Both the position numbers and the translations under genes were made by a program. Source: an uncultured Opitutales bacterium (GTDB lineage: Bacteria; Verrucomicrobiota; Verrucomicrobiia; Opitutales; Seribacteraceae). From it: a DNA stretch of 56,850 nucleotides. A model generated the notes under the pieces. It was given only the letters and a program-made list of their open reading frames with translations. It was not told where the DNA came from and did not search any database. Each line of letters begins with the position of its first letter. The first letter of the stretch is position 1. The stretch covers positions 1 to 56,850 of the forward strand of contig CALKMX010000025.1 in the NCBI GenBank assembly GCA_938091675.1. Reading direction: 5' to 3'. Below, piece by piece: positions 12,680 through 37,949 of the stretch.

Positions 12680-12713
12680 CTCGGAAAATATTTCCTTCTA
12701 CAATCTAGATTGA

Positions 12714-15700
12714 TCAGGACTCAGTCGACTCAGCAACCGTTTCTTCTCCAACTTCTTCGTCGGACTCTTCACTATCTTGCTTTAAATATTCATGGACACT
12801 GAGATCTCCCACAAAAGACTCCCCTTCCCTCCTCTCAACCACATGGTATCTCTCCACATAGCGCTGCACCACATGAATCTTGGCGTCAAGTGGTTGAACA
12901 ATCAATAGCTGTAAATGGAACTCCTTGAACAGATCGAGCAGATACTGGGAAAACTCATCATCGGTCTTACTGAACATTTCATCCACTGCAACCAGACGAA
13001 ATGTCTCGGTTTGTTTGCCGCCGACATCAATTCCATACTGATAAGCAATCGCGGTGGCCAAAATTGTTGAGGCTAATCGATTTTTCTCTCCACCCGATTT
13101 CCCGGCTGCTCCGCTGTAGCTTTGACGAAGAATATCTTCGTCCTTGTAAAACTCATCGGCCCGGAACTTGAACCAGTTTCGGACATCGATCACCCGCTCT
13201 GTCCAATTAAGGTCCTGTTCTAACTCGCCCAGGAACTGCTCAACCCGGTGATAACGTTCACGGCGGCGTTCATCGTCATCATCTGACTCAAGATCACCTT
13301 CAAGGGCATGCCGGCGTAGCTTCTTAAATTTACGCACCCCATCATCTCCCGCATCCTCGATCATCAACTGAATGTAGGTTTGTTCTTTGCGATCAAAAGT
13401 TACCCGAGAAAGATGTTCGTTCAATTCACTAACCCGTTTACGGATGCGGTCACGGTGTGATTCAAGTGCCTCACTGAATCCAGAGACTTCCTCGGGTACC
13501 TGAACCCGTAACAGTTCCTCAAACCTTTGGTGATTCTTGGCCAAGTCCTCCTCCTCTATTTGTTTTCGGACCTGCTCGAAGGAGGAATAGGTGGTATCGG
13601 AATAACCCTCCTCAATATCGAGAACGAGCTCATCCCGAAAAGCCTGATTTCTTCCATCCGCAATGAAGCGTTGCATTGCAGCGACATTTTTATCGCGTAA
13701 TTTATCAAGTGACACTTCGAGCTTTTGCATACGAGCATCCACCTTGTGGGTGGCCGCACGGGCCGATTCCTCAATGTCATCGGGGGATTCTGGGGGCGTA
13801 CCAAACTCCTCTTCGATTTGAGCATAAAGCTCCTGAAGTACCTCTTCCGCCTTCTCGTTGGCTTCATCAGGGTCGTCACCTTCTGCCAATTCTGGAATGA
13901 GTTCATCACGGTATTTCCCTAATAACACACGAATCGCCTCAATGCGGGTTTCATTTCTTTCGGCACGGGCTTCCACTCCCCCGATTCGCTGGAGGATTTG
14001 ATCTCTCGTACCCTGCAAAGAATCAAGCTTTTCTACCAGAGCGTCATGATCCTCCTTTAATTTTTTGAGAACATCTGAGCCTCCAACAATCACCCGTTCC
14101 TCCTCTTCCAAATCGGCAATACGGGTGGATAACCCCAACACATCGATATCGGAAAACTCATTGGCACATGCCTGTAACTGCACACCGGCACGTAATTTTG
14201 CCCGTAAGGTTTGCCTTTCAAATTCAGACTCCCTTATGGAACGACCTGCATTATCTGCTTCCTCTCGCCATTTCCCCAATGCTTCATCCAATGACTTTTG
14301 TTTGGGACTGAGATCCCATCCCATAACCCAAGTGGATGCATCACCCATAAAAAAAGTATCATCTTTTTCTCTGAACGAACCACCGGTTTTAACAACGCCT
14401 TCCAGGGTGACCGCATCGCTTACCTCATCGAACTTCTTGTTTCTTTCCTCGATGCAAAGATGGGGAAATCTCCGATTAATTTCCCACTTAAGCCAAGCCT
14501 GTCTGGATTTTTCAATCTCGGAACGGATAACGAGTTTTGCCAGCAGGGAATCATCGTCTGGTTTGACTTTAGAATGACCCGAGCTTGGACAAATAAATGC
14601 AAGCCGGTCGGCAAGATGATTTTCCTCAAGAAATTTTTCTGCTTCATCTGCAAGTTTTGGAGGAACTACAATGGTAAGGGCAAATTGACGCAGTGTACGC
14701 TCGATAGGTCCAGTCCATTTCGACTCATCCGGCAGCACCTGTACGAGCTCGGCAACAAATGGAAGCTCAGCAATATCCCGATCCAAAGCGATGGCAAGGG
14801 ATGCTCTTAAGCGGGCGATTTCCGGAGGTACGTTGGTATTTGATTCTATTAAGTAATTTCTTTCATCCTCCAATGTTTCTACCCGTTCATTGGCTTTCTT
14901 TAAATGGTAGGATACTTCCACAATCTTTTCATCAAGTTCTGAGATTTTTCCTTCCATTCTGGGGAGTTGAGAATCCAATTCCCTACGGAGAGTAAGGAAG
15001 TCGTCCTCCTGCTTGACAAAAGATCCTTTCTCCCAGGCACTTAAATGCCGTTCAAAATTTGCTGCCCGTTTATTGACCACCTCACGTTTGTCGCGCAAGC
15101 GGTCAATTTCGGCCCCCACCTGTTCAAGCCTACGGTTTTCATCGCTATCAGACAGAGCACGTTCCAAGTGGTTGAGTTTATCGCGAAACCGATCAATCTC
15201 TCCTCTAGCGGTCTTTAGCCGAGCCCTCTCGGCCTCTTCCTGATGATTTAATTCGTCGATCCAATCTGTCCTACGCTCCAACTCTGCCTGTGCGTAAAAG
15301 GGCTCGATGGTCTGTCTGATTTTTTCCGTATTTGCACGCAGGTTCATCGAATCCAGGAACTGGGCATGAGTATTCTGAATTTCATCCAGCTGCTCAATTT
15401 GATAGGATGCAGTCTCGATCCTACGATGCGTGCTGCGAAGATCATCAAATCTTTCCTGCAGAGCAATTAATTTTTCTTTGGCTCCGCCATCATCAAGCAT
15501 GTGCTCTCTGATAAATTGGGTTAGGTCCTTCACATCTTTGATGCAGACTGCTTGATTAAAAATCGACATGGGTGAACGGGTGCCCAAATCTGCATCCAGA
15601 AAAAGCATGGATTCGAATTTTTTGTGATAGGCAGTAAAAGAATCAATGGTGTTGTAACCCCGTTCCTTGAGGATGCGTCTTACATTGTCTGAGTCACCGA

Positions 15701-16208
15701 GCCGATTGAAGTCCCCCTCGATAGTAAGCTTCCTTTTTTCTACCATGAATACCTTGTCTACTTTACCAGATGGCAAACACCACAGGATCTGGACTAGAGT
15801 AACCTCTGACTGGTACGCTTCATTAAAAAAATGGGCAAGCAATACGGTATAGGTTTCACCGGGCTTGCGCAGAGTTTCCTTACGGCCTTGCCCAGTTACT
15901 GAGTCATGTATTTCAGAATATGCACCAAGTACATAATCCCTTTCGTTTCGCTCTCGGCTACCTGCCTGGCTGGAAGCAACATTGTAGTTCCTAACCCGGT
16001 TAGGGACAAGCAATGTAAGCAGGGCATCCACTAAAGTTGATTTCCCTGATCCGTTGCGTCCGGTTATCATTGAAGTGCGCCCATCCGGTCTGATCGTATA
16101 TACCTTGTCGTGAAAGGTTCCCCAATTAAGCAAAGACAGTTCATGCAGGCGGTAACCGGCTGTTGATTTATCCGGTGAAAATTCAAGTTCTAATTGAGAC
16201 TCAAGCAT
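12714..16208 (-). CDS. jetC: JetC/MksB-like SMC ATPase
   Basis: SMC-type motor ATPase of 1164 residues, the MukB-like subunit of Wadjet/MksBEF complexes. It has Walker A GRNGSGKST (50-58), long coiled coils on either side of a central hinge-like region (about 480-640), the ABC signature KSGGEK (about 1037-1042) and Walker B VAVDE (about 1073-1077), so the ATPase looks functional. JetC of known Wadjet systems is close to this length. It overlaps jetB by eight bases and is the third gene of a tightly coupled operon. The C-terminus after about 1145 is an acidic tail rich in Asp, Glu and Ser that is not needed for the fold. In Wadjet the complex extrudes loops on circular plasmids and JetD cuts them. 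Without JetD the complex may serve DNA organisation instead. Confidence 0.92.
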   Translation of the reverse strand: MLESQLELEFSPDKSTAGYRLHELSLLNWGTFHDKVYTIRPDGRTSMITGRNGSGKSTLVDALLTLLVPNRVRNYNVASSQAGSRERNERDYVLGAYSEIHDSVTGQGRKETLRKPGETYTVLLAHFFNEAYQSEVTLVQILWCLPSGKVDKVFMVEKRKLTIEGDFNRLGDSDNVRRILKERGYNTIDSFTAYHKKFESMLFLDADLGTRSPMSIFNQAVCIKDVKDLTQFIREHMLDDGGAKEKLIALQERFDDLRSTHRRIETASYQIEQLDEIQNTHAQFLDSMNLRANTEKIRQTIEPFYAQAELERRTDWIDELNHQEEAERARLKTARGEIDRFRDKLNHLERALSDSDENRRLEQVGAEIDRLRDKREVVNKRAANFERHLSAWEKGSFVKQEDDFLTLRRELDSQLPRMEGKISELDEKIVEVSYHLKKANERVETLEDERNYLIESNTNVPPEIARLRASLAIALDRDIAELPFVAELVQVLPDESKWTGPIERTLRQFALTIVVPPKLADEAEKFLEENHLADRLAFICPSSGHSKVKPDDDSLLAKLVIRSEIEKSRQAWLKWEINRRFPHLCIEERNKKFDEVSDAVTLEGVVKTGGSFREKDDTFFMGDASTWVMGWDLSPKQKSLDEALGKWREEADNAGRSIRESEFERQTLRAKLRAGVQLQACANEFSDIDVLGLSTRIADLEEEERVIVGGSDVLKKLKEDHDALVEKLDSLQGTRDQILQRIGGVEARAERNETRIEAIRVLLGKYRDELIPELAEGDDPDEANEKAEEVLQELYAQIEEEFGTPPESPDDIEESARAATHKVDARMQKLEVSLDKLRDKNVAAMQRFIADGRNQAFRDELVLDIEEGYSDTTYSSFEQVRKQIEEEDLAKNHQRFEELLRVQVPEEVSGFSEALESHRDRIRKRVSELNEHLSRVTFDRKEQTYIQLMIEDAGDDGVRKFKKLRRHALEGDLESDDDDERRRERYHRVEQFLGELEQDLNWTERVIDVRNWFKFRADEFYKDEDILRQSYSGAAGKSGGEKNRLASTILATAIAYQYGIDVGGKQTETFRLVAVDEMFSKTDDEFSQYLLDLFKEFHLQLLIVQPLDAKIHVVQRYVERYHVVERREGESFVGDLSVHEYLKQDSEESDEEVGEETVAESTES

Positions 16209-16824
16209 CTTCTTCCTCCATTTCCTCGTCGAGACCAGGGGCTCTTCGTTTAATTTGATTTTTTACTTCAGTGAGTTTTTCAGGAGGCAATTTGGCCTTA
16301 ATGATTCGCTCAACTCGGTAAAGGCCCTCATCCTTATCACGAACTTTTTTTATAATGCCCCACTCCTCAAATTTATTGATAAGTCCAGCAATCTGACGAT
16401 GGACTTTTTTCTCGTCGTGAAGCTCAGGATAATACGGAGCCATTAGCTCGGTAAGATCAAGGCTCGATCGATAAAGATGATCTCCCTCTTCCTGGTTCTG
16501 CTCAAAGCGCATCAGCTCTTCACGTAATAAAACCATAAAAATAGTCTGGTGATAGGAAAGGCGGGTACGGCGTAACACCCGTGGCAACGGAGAGGATGTG
16601 ACATCATCCCAATTCTCATCCTCCTCGGAATCTTCTTCACGCTGCCTAACATAGGCATAACCGGCGGAGTCATCCCGGGCTACATCTAGCCCCATCTCTC
16701 CAAAATGGCCTTTAATTTTTTCCCATTCTGCCCCAAGGCGACTCCAAAGATCCAAGTCTTCCTGATAAATAGGACCGTTCAATAAGCGAACGATTACATG
16801 TCGGTGAGTGATGGCTGGATTCAT
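16201..16824 (-). CDS. jetB: JetB/MksE-like DUF4194 kite subunit
   Basis: Protein of 207 residues matching the DUF4194 family, the MukE-like winged-helix (kite) subunit that binds the kleisin in MukBEF-type complexes. Supporting features are its length, its acidic middle (EDSEEDENWDD), the motif LRRTRLSYHQTIFMVLLREEL and a C-terminal winged helix with GLINKFEEWGIIKKV. It overlaps jetA by the four bases ATGA and jetC by eight, which gives strict translational coupling and keeps the three subunits in fixed ratio. Confidence 0.87.
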   Translation of the reverse strand: MNPAITHRHVIVRLLNGPIYQEDLDLWSRLGAEWEKIKGHFGEMGLDVARDDSAGYAYVRQREEDSEEDENWDDVTSSPLPRVLRRTRLSYHQTIFMVLLREELMRFEQNQEEGDHLYRSSLDLTELMAPYYPELHDEKKVHRQIAGLINKFEEWGIIKKVRDKDEGLYRVERIIKAKLPPEKLTEVKNQIKRRAPGLDEEMEEEDA

Positions 16825-18275
16825 AAGCTGTTTCGTTGAAAGATGAGTTGCTCGACCTTTACATATCTGGGCTGGGATGGACGGTTTAAATCAACTTCGA
16901 TGAGCTCGTTGGCAATAATTTCATGACGCGGATCTTCACCGGCAATTACGCGGTAGCAGACTATCTCAACCACACCCCGTTCCAATGGATATCTCTCGAC
17001 CATTTCGGAGAGGGTAATTTGCTCAACCTCATCCAAGCTCTCAGTTACACGGCTTCGGTATTTCTTAAGGTCCAGAGGCTCGCCAACCGAGCCCAGGATT
17101 TCGTTAATCCAATCTGAATTCTCTGGCTTAGCGGGTTTCACTTCTGCAAATGCTTCGACCGCTTTGGGTTCCCAAAATTCTGCCTCCATCAAGGTGAAAA
17201 ATTGTGGTCTGATCTCGATTTCAAAATCCCAATCATCCAAGGGCGTTTCTCGCAGGCGATAGGCATGGCTTCGGATTTCGGAAAGTGTTTCCCTGATCTG
17301 TCTGCCTCCCCCACCTGCATGATCTCCAACCACCTGCCTGAGCTTGCGGCTGATACGACCGTAGGCACCATGAGCAGAACTGGCTTCTCCGAATAAGCGG
17401 TCACCAAGATTGGAAAACACTTTCTGAGGATCCAATCCTCTCCTCTTGGCAATATCGGAAGTTTGTTCGGCTAGGCTTCGAAACCTTCGAGCAAGGGATG
17501 GATTGGTCATCATTTCCCTAAATCCAAAATAGCTCTTGCCCTGATCACATGCTCGCAATTCCTCATCCGCATCGAGCACATGTTCAACAATGTCTCCCTT
17601 GGATGCTTTTCCCTGTGCATAAAGGTTGGAAATCTCGCGAGCATGATCACGAAAAAACTCTTCAATGGCACGAAAATCAGAAAGAAAATGATCTACGAGG
17701 TCAGAAAGATCGTAAACTTGATCACGAATTACATCTTCCCCAAAAATAGGTGCCTCTCCAGTCTCTTGAATTCGTTGAATCTCCAAATCGATTTCTTCAC
17801 GCTTTCGGACAAGCTCGCGTATGCGAGTTTCCGGATCAGAATTCACTCCATTGCTCAGCTCCTGCATTTCATGGAGAATTCGATTGAATCGAGACTCTGT
17901 GGTAGCATAGCCACGATGCTGCATAGCAAGTAAATCATTCAGCCAACTGAGGGCCTTTTCAGAATGTCGGGTAAGCCTGAAAACATACTCTTCCCGTTCT
18001 TCATGGTAAGTCTTAGTCAAATAGCGGTGTTCTTCATCACACCATTCATCCAAATATTCCTGTGGACTGCGCTTGGGTGCTTCTGCTTCCTCTAATTCGC
18101 GAATCTGTTCAATATGTTCTGCTAATGTGGCGGAAAGCTCTTCCTCGGATGCTTCAATCACCCCCCATTTTTTGAATGTTTTGAAAAAGAAACCAGCAAC
18201 AAAGGAACCTAACCTGCCACGCATGAGGCGTAGTGCGGGGGACTCATCGAAGAGATGTAAAAATTCCTCATCCAT
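16821..18275 (-). CDS. jetA: JetA/MksF-like DUF3375 kleisin
   Basis: Kleisin subunit of 484 residues of the DUF3375 family, equivalent to MukF. I place the start at the ATG at 18275, where MDEEFLHLFDESPALRLMRGRLG matches the expected N-terminal winged helix. A TTG 18 codons upstream would also give an open frame. Family motifs seen: YLDEWCDEEHRYLTK, FRLTRHSEKALSWL, TESRFNRIL, a central helical region ending at DQGKSYFGFREMM, and a C-terminal winged-helix part (about 400-484). As first gene of the operon it sets transcription for jetB and jetC. Upstream, bases 18276-18428 separate it from the lipoprotein gene and would carry its promoter. Confidence 0.87.
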   Translation of the reverse strand: MDEEFLHLFDESPALRLMRGRLGSFVAGFFFKTFKKWGVIEASEEELSATLAEHIEQIRELEEAEAPKRSPQEYLDEWCDEEHRYLTKTYHEEREEYVFRLTRHSEKALSWLNDLLAMQHRGYATTESRFNRILHEMQELSNGVNSDPETRIRELVRKREEIDLEIQRIQETGEAPIFGEDVIRDQVYDLSDLVDHFLSDFRAIEEFFRDHAREISNLYAQGKASKGDIVEHVLDADEELRACDQGKSYFGFREMMTNPSLARRFRSLAEQTSDIAKRRGLDPQKVFSNLGDRLFGEASSAHGAYGRISRKLRQVVGDHAGGGGRQIRETLSEIRSHAYRLRETPLDDWDFEIEIRPQFFTLMEAEFWEPKAVEAFAEVKPAKPENSDWINEILGSVGEPLDLKKYRSRVTESLDEVEQITLSEMVERYPLERGVVEIVCYRVIAGEDPRHEIIANELIEVDLNRPSQPRYVKVEQLIFQRNSL

Positions 18276-19373: not shown

Positions 19374-19470
19374 CCAAAGTTTGAAAATTATTATAAACTA
19401 AAAAGAAAAGACCCTGACCTCTTTTATATCAAAACAAAAGTATATTAATGATAGATTAAATTTCTTGGGG

Positions 19471-20301
19471 ATGGAAAAAAGCTTTGAGATGTATGGTGAA
19501 ATAATCCGGAATTGTGATGCTCTTCTCATTGGTGCAGGTGCGGGCATGAGTGTGGACTCAGGTTTGCCAGATTTCAGGGGAAATGAGGGTTTCTGGAGGG
19601 CATACCCTCCTTTGGCTAAACTTGGGATAAGATTTGAGGAGATGGCAAATCCCAGATGGTTTAGGGATGACCCAGAACTTGCATGGGGATTTTATGGACA
19701 TCGCTACAACCTTTACCAAAAGGTTAAGCCCCACCCTGGATACTTTATACTTCGTGATTGGATCGCCCATTTAAAATTGCCCCACTTTGTCTACACTTCA
19801 AATGTGGACGGACATTTTATTAAAGCAGGCTGGGTAAATCAGATATTGGAATGCCACGGTTCGTTGATGCACTTGCAATGCATGAACTCGTGTGGGCAAG
19901 GAACTTGGTCAATGACTGAAAGTGTGCACAAGAAATTTGAGGTCTGCCCGAAATCTCTAATTTGCAAGACACCGTTACCCGTCTGCCCGAAATGCGGCAA
20001 TTTAGCACGGCCAAATATTCTGATGTTCTCTGATTTTGACTGGGATACTTCGAGAAATTTACGCCAACACAAAAGACTTTCTCAATGGTTAATAAAACAT
20101 GGTGGTAAGAACCTGCTTATCATGGAGTTTGGAGCTGGTCTAAATGTTCCAACCGTTCGATCTTTTTGTGAAAAAGCTTGGCTTAGCTTTAATTGTCAGA
20201 TGCTTCGAATTAACCCCAGAGATAGTCAAGTTGCTAATGGGATACACTCCATCCGAAAAGGGGCACTTGATACCCTTCAAGGATTGGACAAATACATATG
20301 A
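19471..20301 (+). CDS. Sir2-family NAD-dependent protein deacylase
   Basis: Sirtuin of 276 residues from the ATG at 19471 (a TTG two codons upstream is in frame but unnecessary). The NAD-binding motif GAGAGMSVDSGLPDFRG (21-37), TSNVDGHFIKAG (109-120, where most sirtuins have TQNIDG) and the catalytic His129 in ECHGS are present. Two cysteine pairs, Cys137/Cys141 and Cys172/Cys175, form the usual structural zinc site. The TSNVDGHF form is a common bacterial subgroup. It removes acyl groups from lysines using NAD, with targets unknown here. The convergent glmS stop is 20 bases away. Confidence 0.9.
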   Translation: MEKSFEMYGEIIRNCDALLIGAGAGMSVDSGLPDFRGNEGFWRAYPPLAKLGIRFEEMANPRWFRDDPELAWGFYGHRYNLYQKVKPHPGYFILRDWIAHLKLPHFVYTSNVDGHFIKAGWVNQILECHGSLMHLQCMNSCGQGTWSMTESVHKKFEVCPKSLICKTPLPVCPKCGNLARPNILMFSDFDWDTSRNLRQHKRLSQWLIKHGGKNLLIMEFGAGLNVPTVRSFCEKAWLSFNCQMLRINPRDSQVANGIHSIRKGALDTLQGLDKYI

Positions 20302-35369: not shown

Positions 35370-37949
35370 TTAAAGATCCATGAGGATTTCTCTCCCCTGC
35401 CCTGGTAAATCAGGCCCAACTACTCCCCTCTCTTCTAATTCATCCATAATTCTCGCTGCACGATTATATCCGATACTGAGCTTTCGTTGAAGATTGGAGG
35501 TCGATGCTCTTTTAGTTGTGCGGATAATTTCAACAGCTTTTTTAAGCATAGGGTCTTCATTATCTCCCTCATCACTTGAACCAAGTATGTCATCTTCACC
35601 GGCAGATTCAATTTGGTCACGAACTTCTTCAATAATTTGGGGAGGTCCGTTTACCTTCAAATAGTCGACGATTCCATTAATTTCCTCATCACTCACAAAA
35701 GCCCCCTGAGCTCTCATAAATGTAGCACTACCTGGGGGAATAAACAGCATGTCTCCTTTACCAATTAAGGATTCTGCACCCTTACCATCTAAGATGGTTT
35801 GACTATCCCTGTAAGAAGCAACGCGGAAAGATATTCGACTTGGTAAATTTGCTTTGATTACACCAGTTATCACATTTACTGAAGGTCTTTGTGTTGCAAT
35901 AATGAGATGAATTCCTGCAGCTCGGGCTAATTGGGCGAGCCGGGCAATCCCAGTTTCTACATCTGCTTGAGCAACCATCATCAAGTCGGCCAACTCATCA
36001 ATAATACAAACGATATATGGTAATTTATTTTCAGGAATTTCAAGAGCATCATCATCGCGGGGCACTTGAATAGAAGAGAGAGCTGCACGCTCTTCCGCAG
36101 TCATTTCTGCATCAAGCAACAGAGCTTTTTCTTTTTCTTCCTTATCCTTAAGAATTTTAGCGTTGAACCCTGCAATGTTTCTAACTCCAATCTTAGAGAA
36201 AATTTGGTATCTTCTCTCCATCTCAACTAAAAGCCACTTTAGAGCACCAGGTACTTTTTTAGGTTCTGTGACAACAGGTATAAGCATGTGTGGTAAATCA
36301 TTGTAGACTTTCATTTCCACAATTTTGGGATCCACCATTATAAACCTAACATCCTCTGGACTGGAGTGATAACACAACGAAGCAATGATAGCATTAATAC
36401 AAACTGTCTTTCCAGAACCAGTTGATCCTGCAACTAAGAGGTGAGGCATTTTGGTAAGGTCTGCCACCAATGGTCTTCCGCTTGCTTCTTTGCCTAAGAC
36501 AATAGGAATCTCTGCGTTGGCATCCGCCCAAGCTTTAGACTGCAGGATTTCCTTTAAACAAACAGGCGCGGCAAATTCGTTTGGAACCTCTACGCCTACA
36601 CACCCTTTCCCTGGAACAGGGGCTAAGATACGCACACTATCAGCCCGTAGTGCCATGGCTAGATTTTTGTCTAGGTTGGCAATCTTTTCGACCCGGACAC
36701 CGGCTGCGGGGTGAATATCATATCGAGTAATTACTGGCCCGGTGTGGACTTCTCCTAATTCCACATCAATTTTAAACTCAGCTAAAGTCTCTTTTAGCCT
36801 TTTGGCTTTAATCATGTGATCCTCATCGGCTCCTGAAATTACCTCAGGAGGTTCCATTAATAAATCTAGGGTGGGAAAGTGATAATCTCCTTTTCGCTCA
36901 GGGAAAAGATCAGTGGCTTTTTCCGTTTTTTCTGCCCTGACTACTTTAAATCCATCGTCGACAGACACTTTCTCAAAACTTTTTAAACTTTCTTCGTTTT
37001 GAGCGTCCGTTAAATTTTGATTCGAATTTTCTACTTCATCGGATTCTTTTGCTGGTTCTTTAAAAGAAGAGGCTATATTTTTTTCTGTTGGCTTAGACGG
37101 CACCTTGGGTGAGGTAAGATTGTTTGCAACATCCTTGAACTCTTTTTCCTGCTGGGAAACATCACCAAATAATGGATCTTGCTGATTATTTTTTGCCTGA
37201 GGTAAAATAAATTTCCAAAATCTCTTATCCCTAGCAGTTGGTGGAACTTTTTCCTCACTAGGTTTTTGAGGAATATTTTCTTTTACTTTTTTCTTTTTAA
37301 AACTACCTGCTAATCCGGAAATGAATGACAGTATTCCGCAAAACTTTTCCGACCCGAATGAGAAATGCAATGCCAGGGAAGATGCCAGAACAATAATTGC
37401 AAGCAGCCATGTACCCGCTTCTCCTATCCAAATTCTAAGAAGCCCTCCAGAAAAGTGTTCAACCCCGCCAAACAAAGGAAGTCCAGAATATAACCATGCC
37501 CCAAGTGAACCACCAGCACCATGCTCAAAGGTAAGTTGATCGAACAGGGGTTTTTCTTTTGCGATTATGGCAGAGTAGTCCTTGAGGTTGGCCATTAAAG
37601 AAACTGAAATTAACACGAATGGAAGAGGTACCAACTTTTGAAGTTTTTGTTCTTTTCTAAACGTTGATAGTAGTAGCCAGGAACAAACACCAAAAAACCA
37701 TGGCAGAAACCACGCCGAAATTCCAAAATATGCGAAAGCATACCTTGCAATAATATTTCCAGTTTTCCCAAGGAGAGGTGGAGTTCCCTCTGGAGGGAAG
37801 CTATGAAAATTAGAAGGGTCGTAATCAATCAAAGCCAACAAGATAAATACCGAAACAAGGGCAAAAATAATTGCCCAACCCGTCTTACGGGGTACAGAAA
37901 GTTGCGACAACCCGCTCCCTTGTTTATTCTTCTCAGATACGTTTGCCAC
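35370..37949 (-). CDS. ftsK: FtsK/SpoIIIE DNA translocase
   Basis: Protein of 859 residues with an N-terminal membrane region of several helices within about 22-195, a charged linker (about 215-360), a RecA-like motor with Walker A AGSTGSGKT (about 504-511) and Walker B IVCIIDELADL, and a C-terminal gamma winged helix (KRASTSNLQRKLSIGYNRAARIMDELEERGVVG) that reads KOPS DNA sites. It pumps chromosome DNA at the septum and helps dimer resolution. The start is GTG at 37949. The motor motif LIIATQRPSVNVITGVIKANLPSRI is family-typical. Confidence 0.95.
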   Translation of the reverse strand: MANVSEKNKQGSGLSQLSVPRKTGWAIIFALVSVFILLALIDYDPSNFHSFPPEGTPPLLGKTGNIIARYAFAYFGISAWFLPWFFGVCSWLLLSTFRKEQKLQKLVPLPFVLISVSLMANLKDYSAIIAKEKPLFDQLTFEHGAGGSLGAWLYSGLPLFGGVEHFSGGLLRIWIGEAGTWLLAIIVLASSLALHFSFGSEKFCGILSFISGLAGSFKKKKVKENIPQKPSEEKVPPTARDKRFWKFILPQAKNNQQDPLFGDVSQQEKEFKDVANNLTSPKVPSKPTEKNIASSFKEPAKESDEVENSNQNLTDAQNEESLKSFEKVSVDDGFKVVRAEKTEKATDLFPERKGDYHFPTLDLLMEPPEVISGADEDHMIKAKRLKETLAEFKIDVELGEVHTGPVITRYDIHPAAGVRVEKIANLDKNLAMALRADSVRILAPVPGKGCVGVEVPNEFAAPVCLKEILQSKAWADANAEIPIVLGKEASGRPLVADLTKMPHLLVAGSTGSGKTVCINAIIASLCYHSSPEDVRFIMVDPKIVEMKVYNDLPHMLIPVVTEPKKVPGALKWLLVEMERRYQIFSKIGVRNIAGFNAKILKDKEEKEKALLLDAEMTAEERAALSSIQVPRDDDALEIPENKLPYIVCIIDELADLMMVAQADVETGIARLAQLARAAGIHLIIATQRPSVNVITGVIKANLPSRISFRVASYRDSQTILDGKGAESLIGKGDMLFIPPGSATFMRAQGAFVSDEEINGIVDYLKVNGPPQIIEEVRDQIESAGEDDILGSSDEGDNEDPMLKKAVEIIRTTKRASTSNLQRKLSIGYNRAARIMDELEERGVVGPDLPGQGREILMDL

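What the first reader, a model, noticed from the sequence alone, without database searches (positions are those of the whole stretch)
12714..18275. Complete jetABC operon without jetD
Tightly overlapping jetA-jetB-jetC encode kleisin, kite and SMC ATPase with intact motifs, but no DUF3322/DUF2220 nuclease (JetD) follows jetC. An aldo/keto reductase occupies that place. Wadjet defence needs JetD to cut plasmids. This complex may be a chromosome-organising MksBEF, use a nuclease elsewhere, or be a new defence variant.
Basis: partly seen in the sequence, partly recalled or inferred. Interest (0 to 1): 0.75.

Follow-up and report, generated by a model that had tools for sequence, protein, structure and literature searches.

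The report
Wadjet-derived complex without its nuclease
A whole family of uncultured marine bacteria has kept a DNA-folding motor that descends from a plasmid-destroying defence system but has lost the system's DNA-cutting enzyme; since the same bacteria also lack the usual chromosome-folding machine, the old defence motor may now organise their chromosome.

Summary
The operon is real: intact, overlapping jetA-jetB-jetC of Wadjet type I (16821-18275, 16201-16824, 12714-16208, minus strand) with no jetD. The absence is not a local accident. JetD (PF09983) is missing from all 42 genomes of the window's family, while JetC is present in 30 of them, at a largely fixed locus and 66-92% identical. Outside the family, every close JetC relative of the order (17 genomes) and the plasmid outgroups checked carry jetD directly after jetC. 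In the JetC tree the family is one fully supported clade among JetD-bearing sequences, so one jetD loss is enough. No SMC hinge, SMC_N-type SMC or ScpB was found in the family, although most of the order has them; JetABC is the only condensin-type complex detected there. Best reading: a defence-derived, nuclease-free MksBEF-like loop extruder working on the chromosome. It is not strictly essential: two genomes (G016, G037) have intact sites without it, and genus g4 lacks it. The aldo/keto reductase is an independent neighbour, present without jetABC too. The kind is known (P. aeruginosa MksBEF, MukBEF); this is an independent variant in another phylum. Function is inferred, not shown.

The parts
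16821..18275 (-). jetA (DUF3375 kleisin, 484 aa)
   Evidence: PADLOC JetA1 3.7e-91; Pfam DUF3375 2.9e-75; PDB JetA 2e-11 over the N-terminal part
16201..16824 (-). jetB (DUF4194 KITE subunit, 207 aa); overlaps jetA by 4 bp
   Evidence: PADLOC JetB1 6.8e-42; Pfam DUF4194 1.4e-31, MksE 9e-9
12714..16208 (-). jetC (SMC/MukB-like ATPase, 1164 aa); overlaps jetB by 8 bp
   Evidence: PADLOC JetC1 2e-260; PDB JetC 3.2e-50
16035..16061 (-). JetC Walker A, GRNGSGKST (residues 50-58)
   Evidence: alignment A1; 25 of 25 family members
13077..13100 (-). JetC ABC signature, KSGGEKNR (residues 1037-1044)
   Evidence: alignment A1; 25 of 25
12972..12995 (-). JetC Walker B region, LVAVDEMF (residues 1072-1079)
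   Evidence: alignment A1; AVDEMF in 25 of 25
12680..12713 (-). 34-bp gap between jetC and the aldo/keto reductase, where jetD begins in JetD-bearing relatives; no remnant
   Evidence: sequence; jetD directly after jetC in L083-L099

Best explanation
The operon encodes a complete JetABC (MksFEB-type) SMC motor that descends from a type I Wadjet defence system. Its nuclease gene jetD was lost once, in the ancestor of the jetABC-bearing genera of this Opitutales family, and the remaining motor has since been inherited vertically. By homology it should use ATP to extrude DNA loops, as Wadjet JetABC does, but without JetD extrusion cannot end in cleavage. In genomes with no detectable SMC-ScpAB, it most likely folds or helps segregate the chromosome, as JetD-less MksBEF does in P. 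aeruginosa. Shown here: intact genes and ATPase motifs, family-wide absence of JetD, nesting among JetD-bearing relatives, no detectable SMC or ScpB, strong conservation. Inferred: loop extrusion, chromosomal role, partial replacement of SMC-ScpAB.
For: JetD_C in 0 of 42 family genomes. JetC in 30 of 42, at 66-92% identity; in genera g1-g3 30 of 40 observed against 32.2 expected from assembly completeness. JetC in other families of the order is patchy (17 of about 199 sampled genomes) and always has jetD next to it. The family is one clade (SH-aLRT 100) among JetD-bearing sequences, and its genera come out in order. The position is shared between genera: downstream reductase, upstream lipoprotein gene. 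SMC_hinge 0 in the family against 136 of 223 in the order; ScpB 0 against 140 of 223 at E about 1e-40; no 1200-aa SMC_N frame other than JetC. JetA/B/C evolve as slowly as GlmS (dN 0.05-0.11 within the genus; JetA dN/dS about 0.02) while other neighbours evolve faster. No defence genes among ten neighbours tested. Published precedent: P. [quoted passage not shown]
Against: jetABC is missing from intact sites in G016 and G037 and was not found in genus g4, and those genomes also show no SMC, so the complex is not essential and the family can apparently live with no known condensin. Several other SMC-less families of the order have no JetABC either, so SMC loss does not need JetABC as replacement. 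No functional data exist. JetA columns that changed in the family do not form an obvious patch that could be read as a lost JetD-docking site.
Confidence: 0.66

Rival explanations
1. It is still a defence system: JetABC extrudes and compacts or silences incoming plasmids without cutting them, or it recruits an unrelated nuclease encoded elsewhere.
For: The motor is complete and of the plasmid-sensing type I. It is dispensable and was lost cleanly at least once or twice, as defence genes are. Smc5/6 is thought to restrict circular DNA by compaction without a nuclease (PMC10586767).
Against: Distribution is not that of a defence gene: mostly fixed locus, vertical inheritance, about 75% of g1-g3 genomes, GlmS-like conservation. 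No defence genes nearby. No conserved nuclease gene in the neighbourhood.
Confidence: 0.22
2. It is a decaying relic of a Wadjet system that lost jetD and has no remaining function.
For: Lost from intact sites in G016 and G037.
Against: All three genes are intact across the family, ATPase motifs 25 of 25, dN/dS about 0.02 for jetA where dS could be estimated.
Confidence: 0.03
3. jetD is present in these bacteria but was missed: elsewhere in the genome, in an assembly gap, or too diverged.
For: The genomes are draft assemblies, 51-96% complete.
Against: 0 of 42 genomes, while jetABC with both flanks is assembled in many of them; the same model finds JetD in all 17 JetC-bearing genomes of other families.
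Confidence: 0.05

Closest known systems
Wadjet type I (JetABCD / MksBEFG / EptABCD)
   Same: Gene order jetA-jetB-jetC, overlapping genes, protein families DUF3375, DUF4194 and JetC1; nearest relatives at 40-43% identity in the same order are JetD-bearing type I systems.
   Different: JetD, the nuclease that makes it a plasmid-cutting system, is absent in the whole family; vertical, near-fixed inheritance instead of patchy distribution.
MksBEF of Pseudomonas aeruginosa (JetD-less condensin)
   Same: An MksB/E/F complex without the nuclease; a review proposes the same origin by loss of JetD and cites a role in chromosome organisation.
   Different: P. aeruginosa also has SMC-ScpAB; here no SMC or ScpB was detected. 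JetB matches DUF4194 (110 bits) far better than the MksE model (36 bits), so this looks like a separate loss. No direct tree with the P. aeruginosa protein was made.
MukBEF of enterobacteria
   Same: A Muk-type complex in genomes without SMC-ScpAB.
   Different: Only distant sequence similarity (MukB N-terminal PDB chain at E 8e-4); MukBEF is needed for normal growth, while this operon was lost in some relatives.

Membership tests
Wadjet type I | JetA, JetB and JetC of the type I families in one operon | tested here: met
Wadjet type I | JetD nuclease encoded in the operon (or at least in the genome) | tested here: not met
Wadjet type I | Restriction of small circular plasmids | not testable with these tools
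   needs a plasmid assay
MksBEF (nuclease-free Muk-type condensin) | MksB, MksE and MksF homologues with intact SMC ATPase motifs | tested here: met
   MksE Pfam model 9e-9
MksBEF (nuclease-free Muk-type condensin) | No MksG/JetD | tested here: met
MksBEF (nuclease-free Muk-type condensin) | Role in chromosome organisation | not testable with these tools
   inferred only from inheritance, conservation and absence of SMC-ScpAB
Sole condensin of the cell (as MukBEF) | SMC-ScpAB absent from the same genomes | tested here: met
   ScpA itself was not searched
Sole condensin of the cell (as MukBEF) | Retained in every member of the lineage | tested here: not met
   empty sites in G016 and G037; not found in genus g4

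The most novel reading that the evidence does not exclude
A plasmid-defence system was turned into the only chromosome-folding SMC complex of a bacterial family: type I Wadjet lost its nuclease and took over, at least partly, from SMC-ScpAB in these marine Opitutales, with JetD-bearing sister systems still present in the same order for direct comparison.
Probability: 0.45. Interest if true: 0.75.

Novelty: new variant of a known kind. Interest (0 to 1): 0.6.

Why it matters
A review proposes that MksBEF, and perhaps MukBEF, arose from Wadjet defence systems by loss of JetD (PMC10586767). Here such a loss can be placed on one branch, the defence-type sisters survive in the same order, and SMC-ScpAB is missing, so the step from defence to chromosome maintenance could be tested directly. 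The relatives with neither JetABC nor SMC raise a second question: how bacterial chromosomes are managed with no known condensin.

Tried and rejected
JetD elsewhere in the genome: none. The aldo/keto reductase as replacement effector: rejected, it remains in G016, G037 and genus g4 without jetABC. Sir2 gene as partner: its presence does not follow jetABC (missing in L106, which has jetABC; present in g4, which lacks it). Absence of jetABC in G031 as gene loss: undecided, its neighbours (reductase, Sir2) are missing too, so an assembly gap is likely. A strictly essential sole condensin: rejected by the two empty sites. JetD-docking patch on JetA from shifted columns: nothing clear. dN/dS on jetC and jetB: dS saturated, only dN usable. 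The 'phage' JetC hit MT835499 is not phage-like; its flanks look like an actinobacterial chromosome. Petrushenko 2011 and Deep 2022 are not held.

Full report
Observation. The three genes are as described: jetC 12714-16208, jetB 16201-16824, jetA 16821-18275, minus strand, overlapping by 8 and 4 bp. PADLOC assigns all three to type I Wadjet with very strong scores, Pfam gives DUF4194 and DUF3375, and the closest solved structures are JetC and JetA of JetABCD complexes. The gap between jetC and the next gene, an aldo/keto reductase, is 34 bp. No JetD_C domain was found in the genome of the window (1.66 Mb, 123 contigs, about 91% complete).

The absence of jetD is a property of the family. In the 42 genomes held for the window's family, JetC is clearly present in 30 (G033 as a fragment at a contig end; a weak 25% match in G016 is not counted) and JetD in none. 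In the 223 genomes sampled from the order, 17 genomes of other families (f3, f10, f20, f21, f22, f24) hold a strong JetC, and each holds JetD; in all loci read, jetD follows jetC directly. Plasmid-borne outgroups from Thiodictyon and Streptomyces have a JetD-type gene annotated there, and Nocardia has one by profile match. Named records show that the family consists of uncultured, largely marine Opitutales/Opitutia genomes and that the JetD-bearing relatives include Puniceicoccaceae and Coraliomargarita sp. SDUM461004.

Phylogeny. In a maximum-likelihood tree of 55 JetC proteins the 30 family rows form one clade (SH-aLRT 100); two sister clades and the deeper branches all carry JetD, except one lone mislabelled record. 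The exact branching between the family and its two JetD-bearing sister clades is unresolved, but either way JetD presence is ancestral and one loss is enough. Within the family, genus g2 branches first, g1 is a clade, g3 lies between, which agrees with vertical inheritance. The tree was a quick search, and some outgroup branches are long.

Locus. jetABC is followed by the same aldo/keto reductase and preceded by the same SGL-type lipoprotein gene in g1 and most of g3; in g2 the same genes lie nearby with insertions. The neighbourhood is metabolic (glmS, glutamate synthase, sulfatases) plus ftsK, with no defence genes among the ten flanking proteins scanned. GC content is that of neighbouring genes. 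JetA, JetB and JetC are as conserved as GlmS and far more conserved than the lipoprotein, Sir2 and nitrilase genes; dN is 0.05-0.11 within the genus against mostly saturated dS, and dN/dS for jetA is about 0.02. ATPase motifs are unchanged in 25 of 25.

SMC-ScpAB is missing. SMC_hinge is found in 136 of 223 genomes of the order, 119 of 161 good ones, but in none of the family. ScpB is found in 140 of 223 at E around 1e-40, none in the family. With SMC_N, true SMC proteins of the order score about 1e-39 in frames of 1240 aa; the family shows only RecF-sized and ABC-type hits and JetC itself. ScpA was not searched. JetABC is thus the only condensin-type complex detected.

Limits. The complex is not indispensable. 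G016 has glmS followed directly by the reductase, and G037 has reductase, lipoprotein and glmS in a row, both without jetABC. G016 lies inside a jetABC-bearing subclade of the reductase tree (support 98/95), so its absence is a secondary loss. Genus g4 (two genomes, 93% and 89% complete) has the reductase in another context and no jetABC; whether it lost or never had it is open. Eight further genomes without JetC lack the close reductase orthologue too, so missing sequence is the simpler reading there. With completeness taken into account, 30 of 40 in g1-g3 does not differ from a core gene (32.2 expected, P 0.23), but that test is weak. Other families of the order (f5, f6, f12, f15, f18, f25-f28) also show no SMC and, as far as listed, no JetABC. 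SMC loss may therefore be older than, and independent of, the fate of JetABC.

Mechanism. Type I JetABC is a dimeric loop-extruding motor whose completed extrusion of a plasmid activates JetD (PMC12647877), and MksG/JetD binds the kleisin (PMC10123090). Removing JetD leaves a motor that can extrude but not cut. In P. aeruginosa a JetD-less MksBEF contributes to chromosome organisation and probably arose in this way (PMC10586767). With SMC-ScpAB gone, the most likely job of the window's complex is chromosome folding. This last step is inference. A non-cutting defence role remains possible.

Novelty. Nuclease-free MksBEF and replacement of SMC-ScpAB by a Muk-type complex are both known separately. 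Their combination in an unrelated phylum, with a traceable defence ancestor, is a new variant; the literature searched here showed no earlier report, but key subscription papers could not be read.

Noticed in passing
G045, G046, G052, G055, G058, G065, G066, G068, G073, G076, G097, G171 (order sample): Several Opitutales families (f5, f6, f12, f15, f18, f25-f28) show no SMC by SMC_N and, as far as listed, no SMC hinge, ScpB or JetC: apparently condensin-free bacteria, one of them with a 4.1 Mb genome at 95% completeness.
   Followed up: partly
L168:7844-10768; L169:4691-9070: Clean empty sites: jetABC absent between intact neighbours in G016 and G037, in G016 together with the lipoprotein and Sir2 genes.
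   Followed up: yes
L188 (MT835499.1, 20739-33933): A record labelled Bacteriophage holds a lone JetC-like gene beside an alcohol dehydrogenase gene and transporter genes; it looks like an actinobacterial chromosome fragment, not a phage.
   Followed up: partly
L118 (G025:C336) and L184 (G025:C516): Genome G025 (genus g3) carries one g1-type and one g3-type jetC on different contigs; the g1-type contig is probably bin contamination.
   Followed up: no
window 19465-20301: A Sir2-family gene lies two genes upstream of jetA on the other strand in most members, but its presence does not follow that of jetABC.
   Followed up: partly
window 35370-37949: FtsK translocase with its gamma domain on the same contig, so FtsK-based chromosome segregation is retained although SMC-ScpAB is not found.
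   Followed up: no
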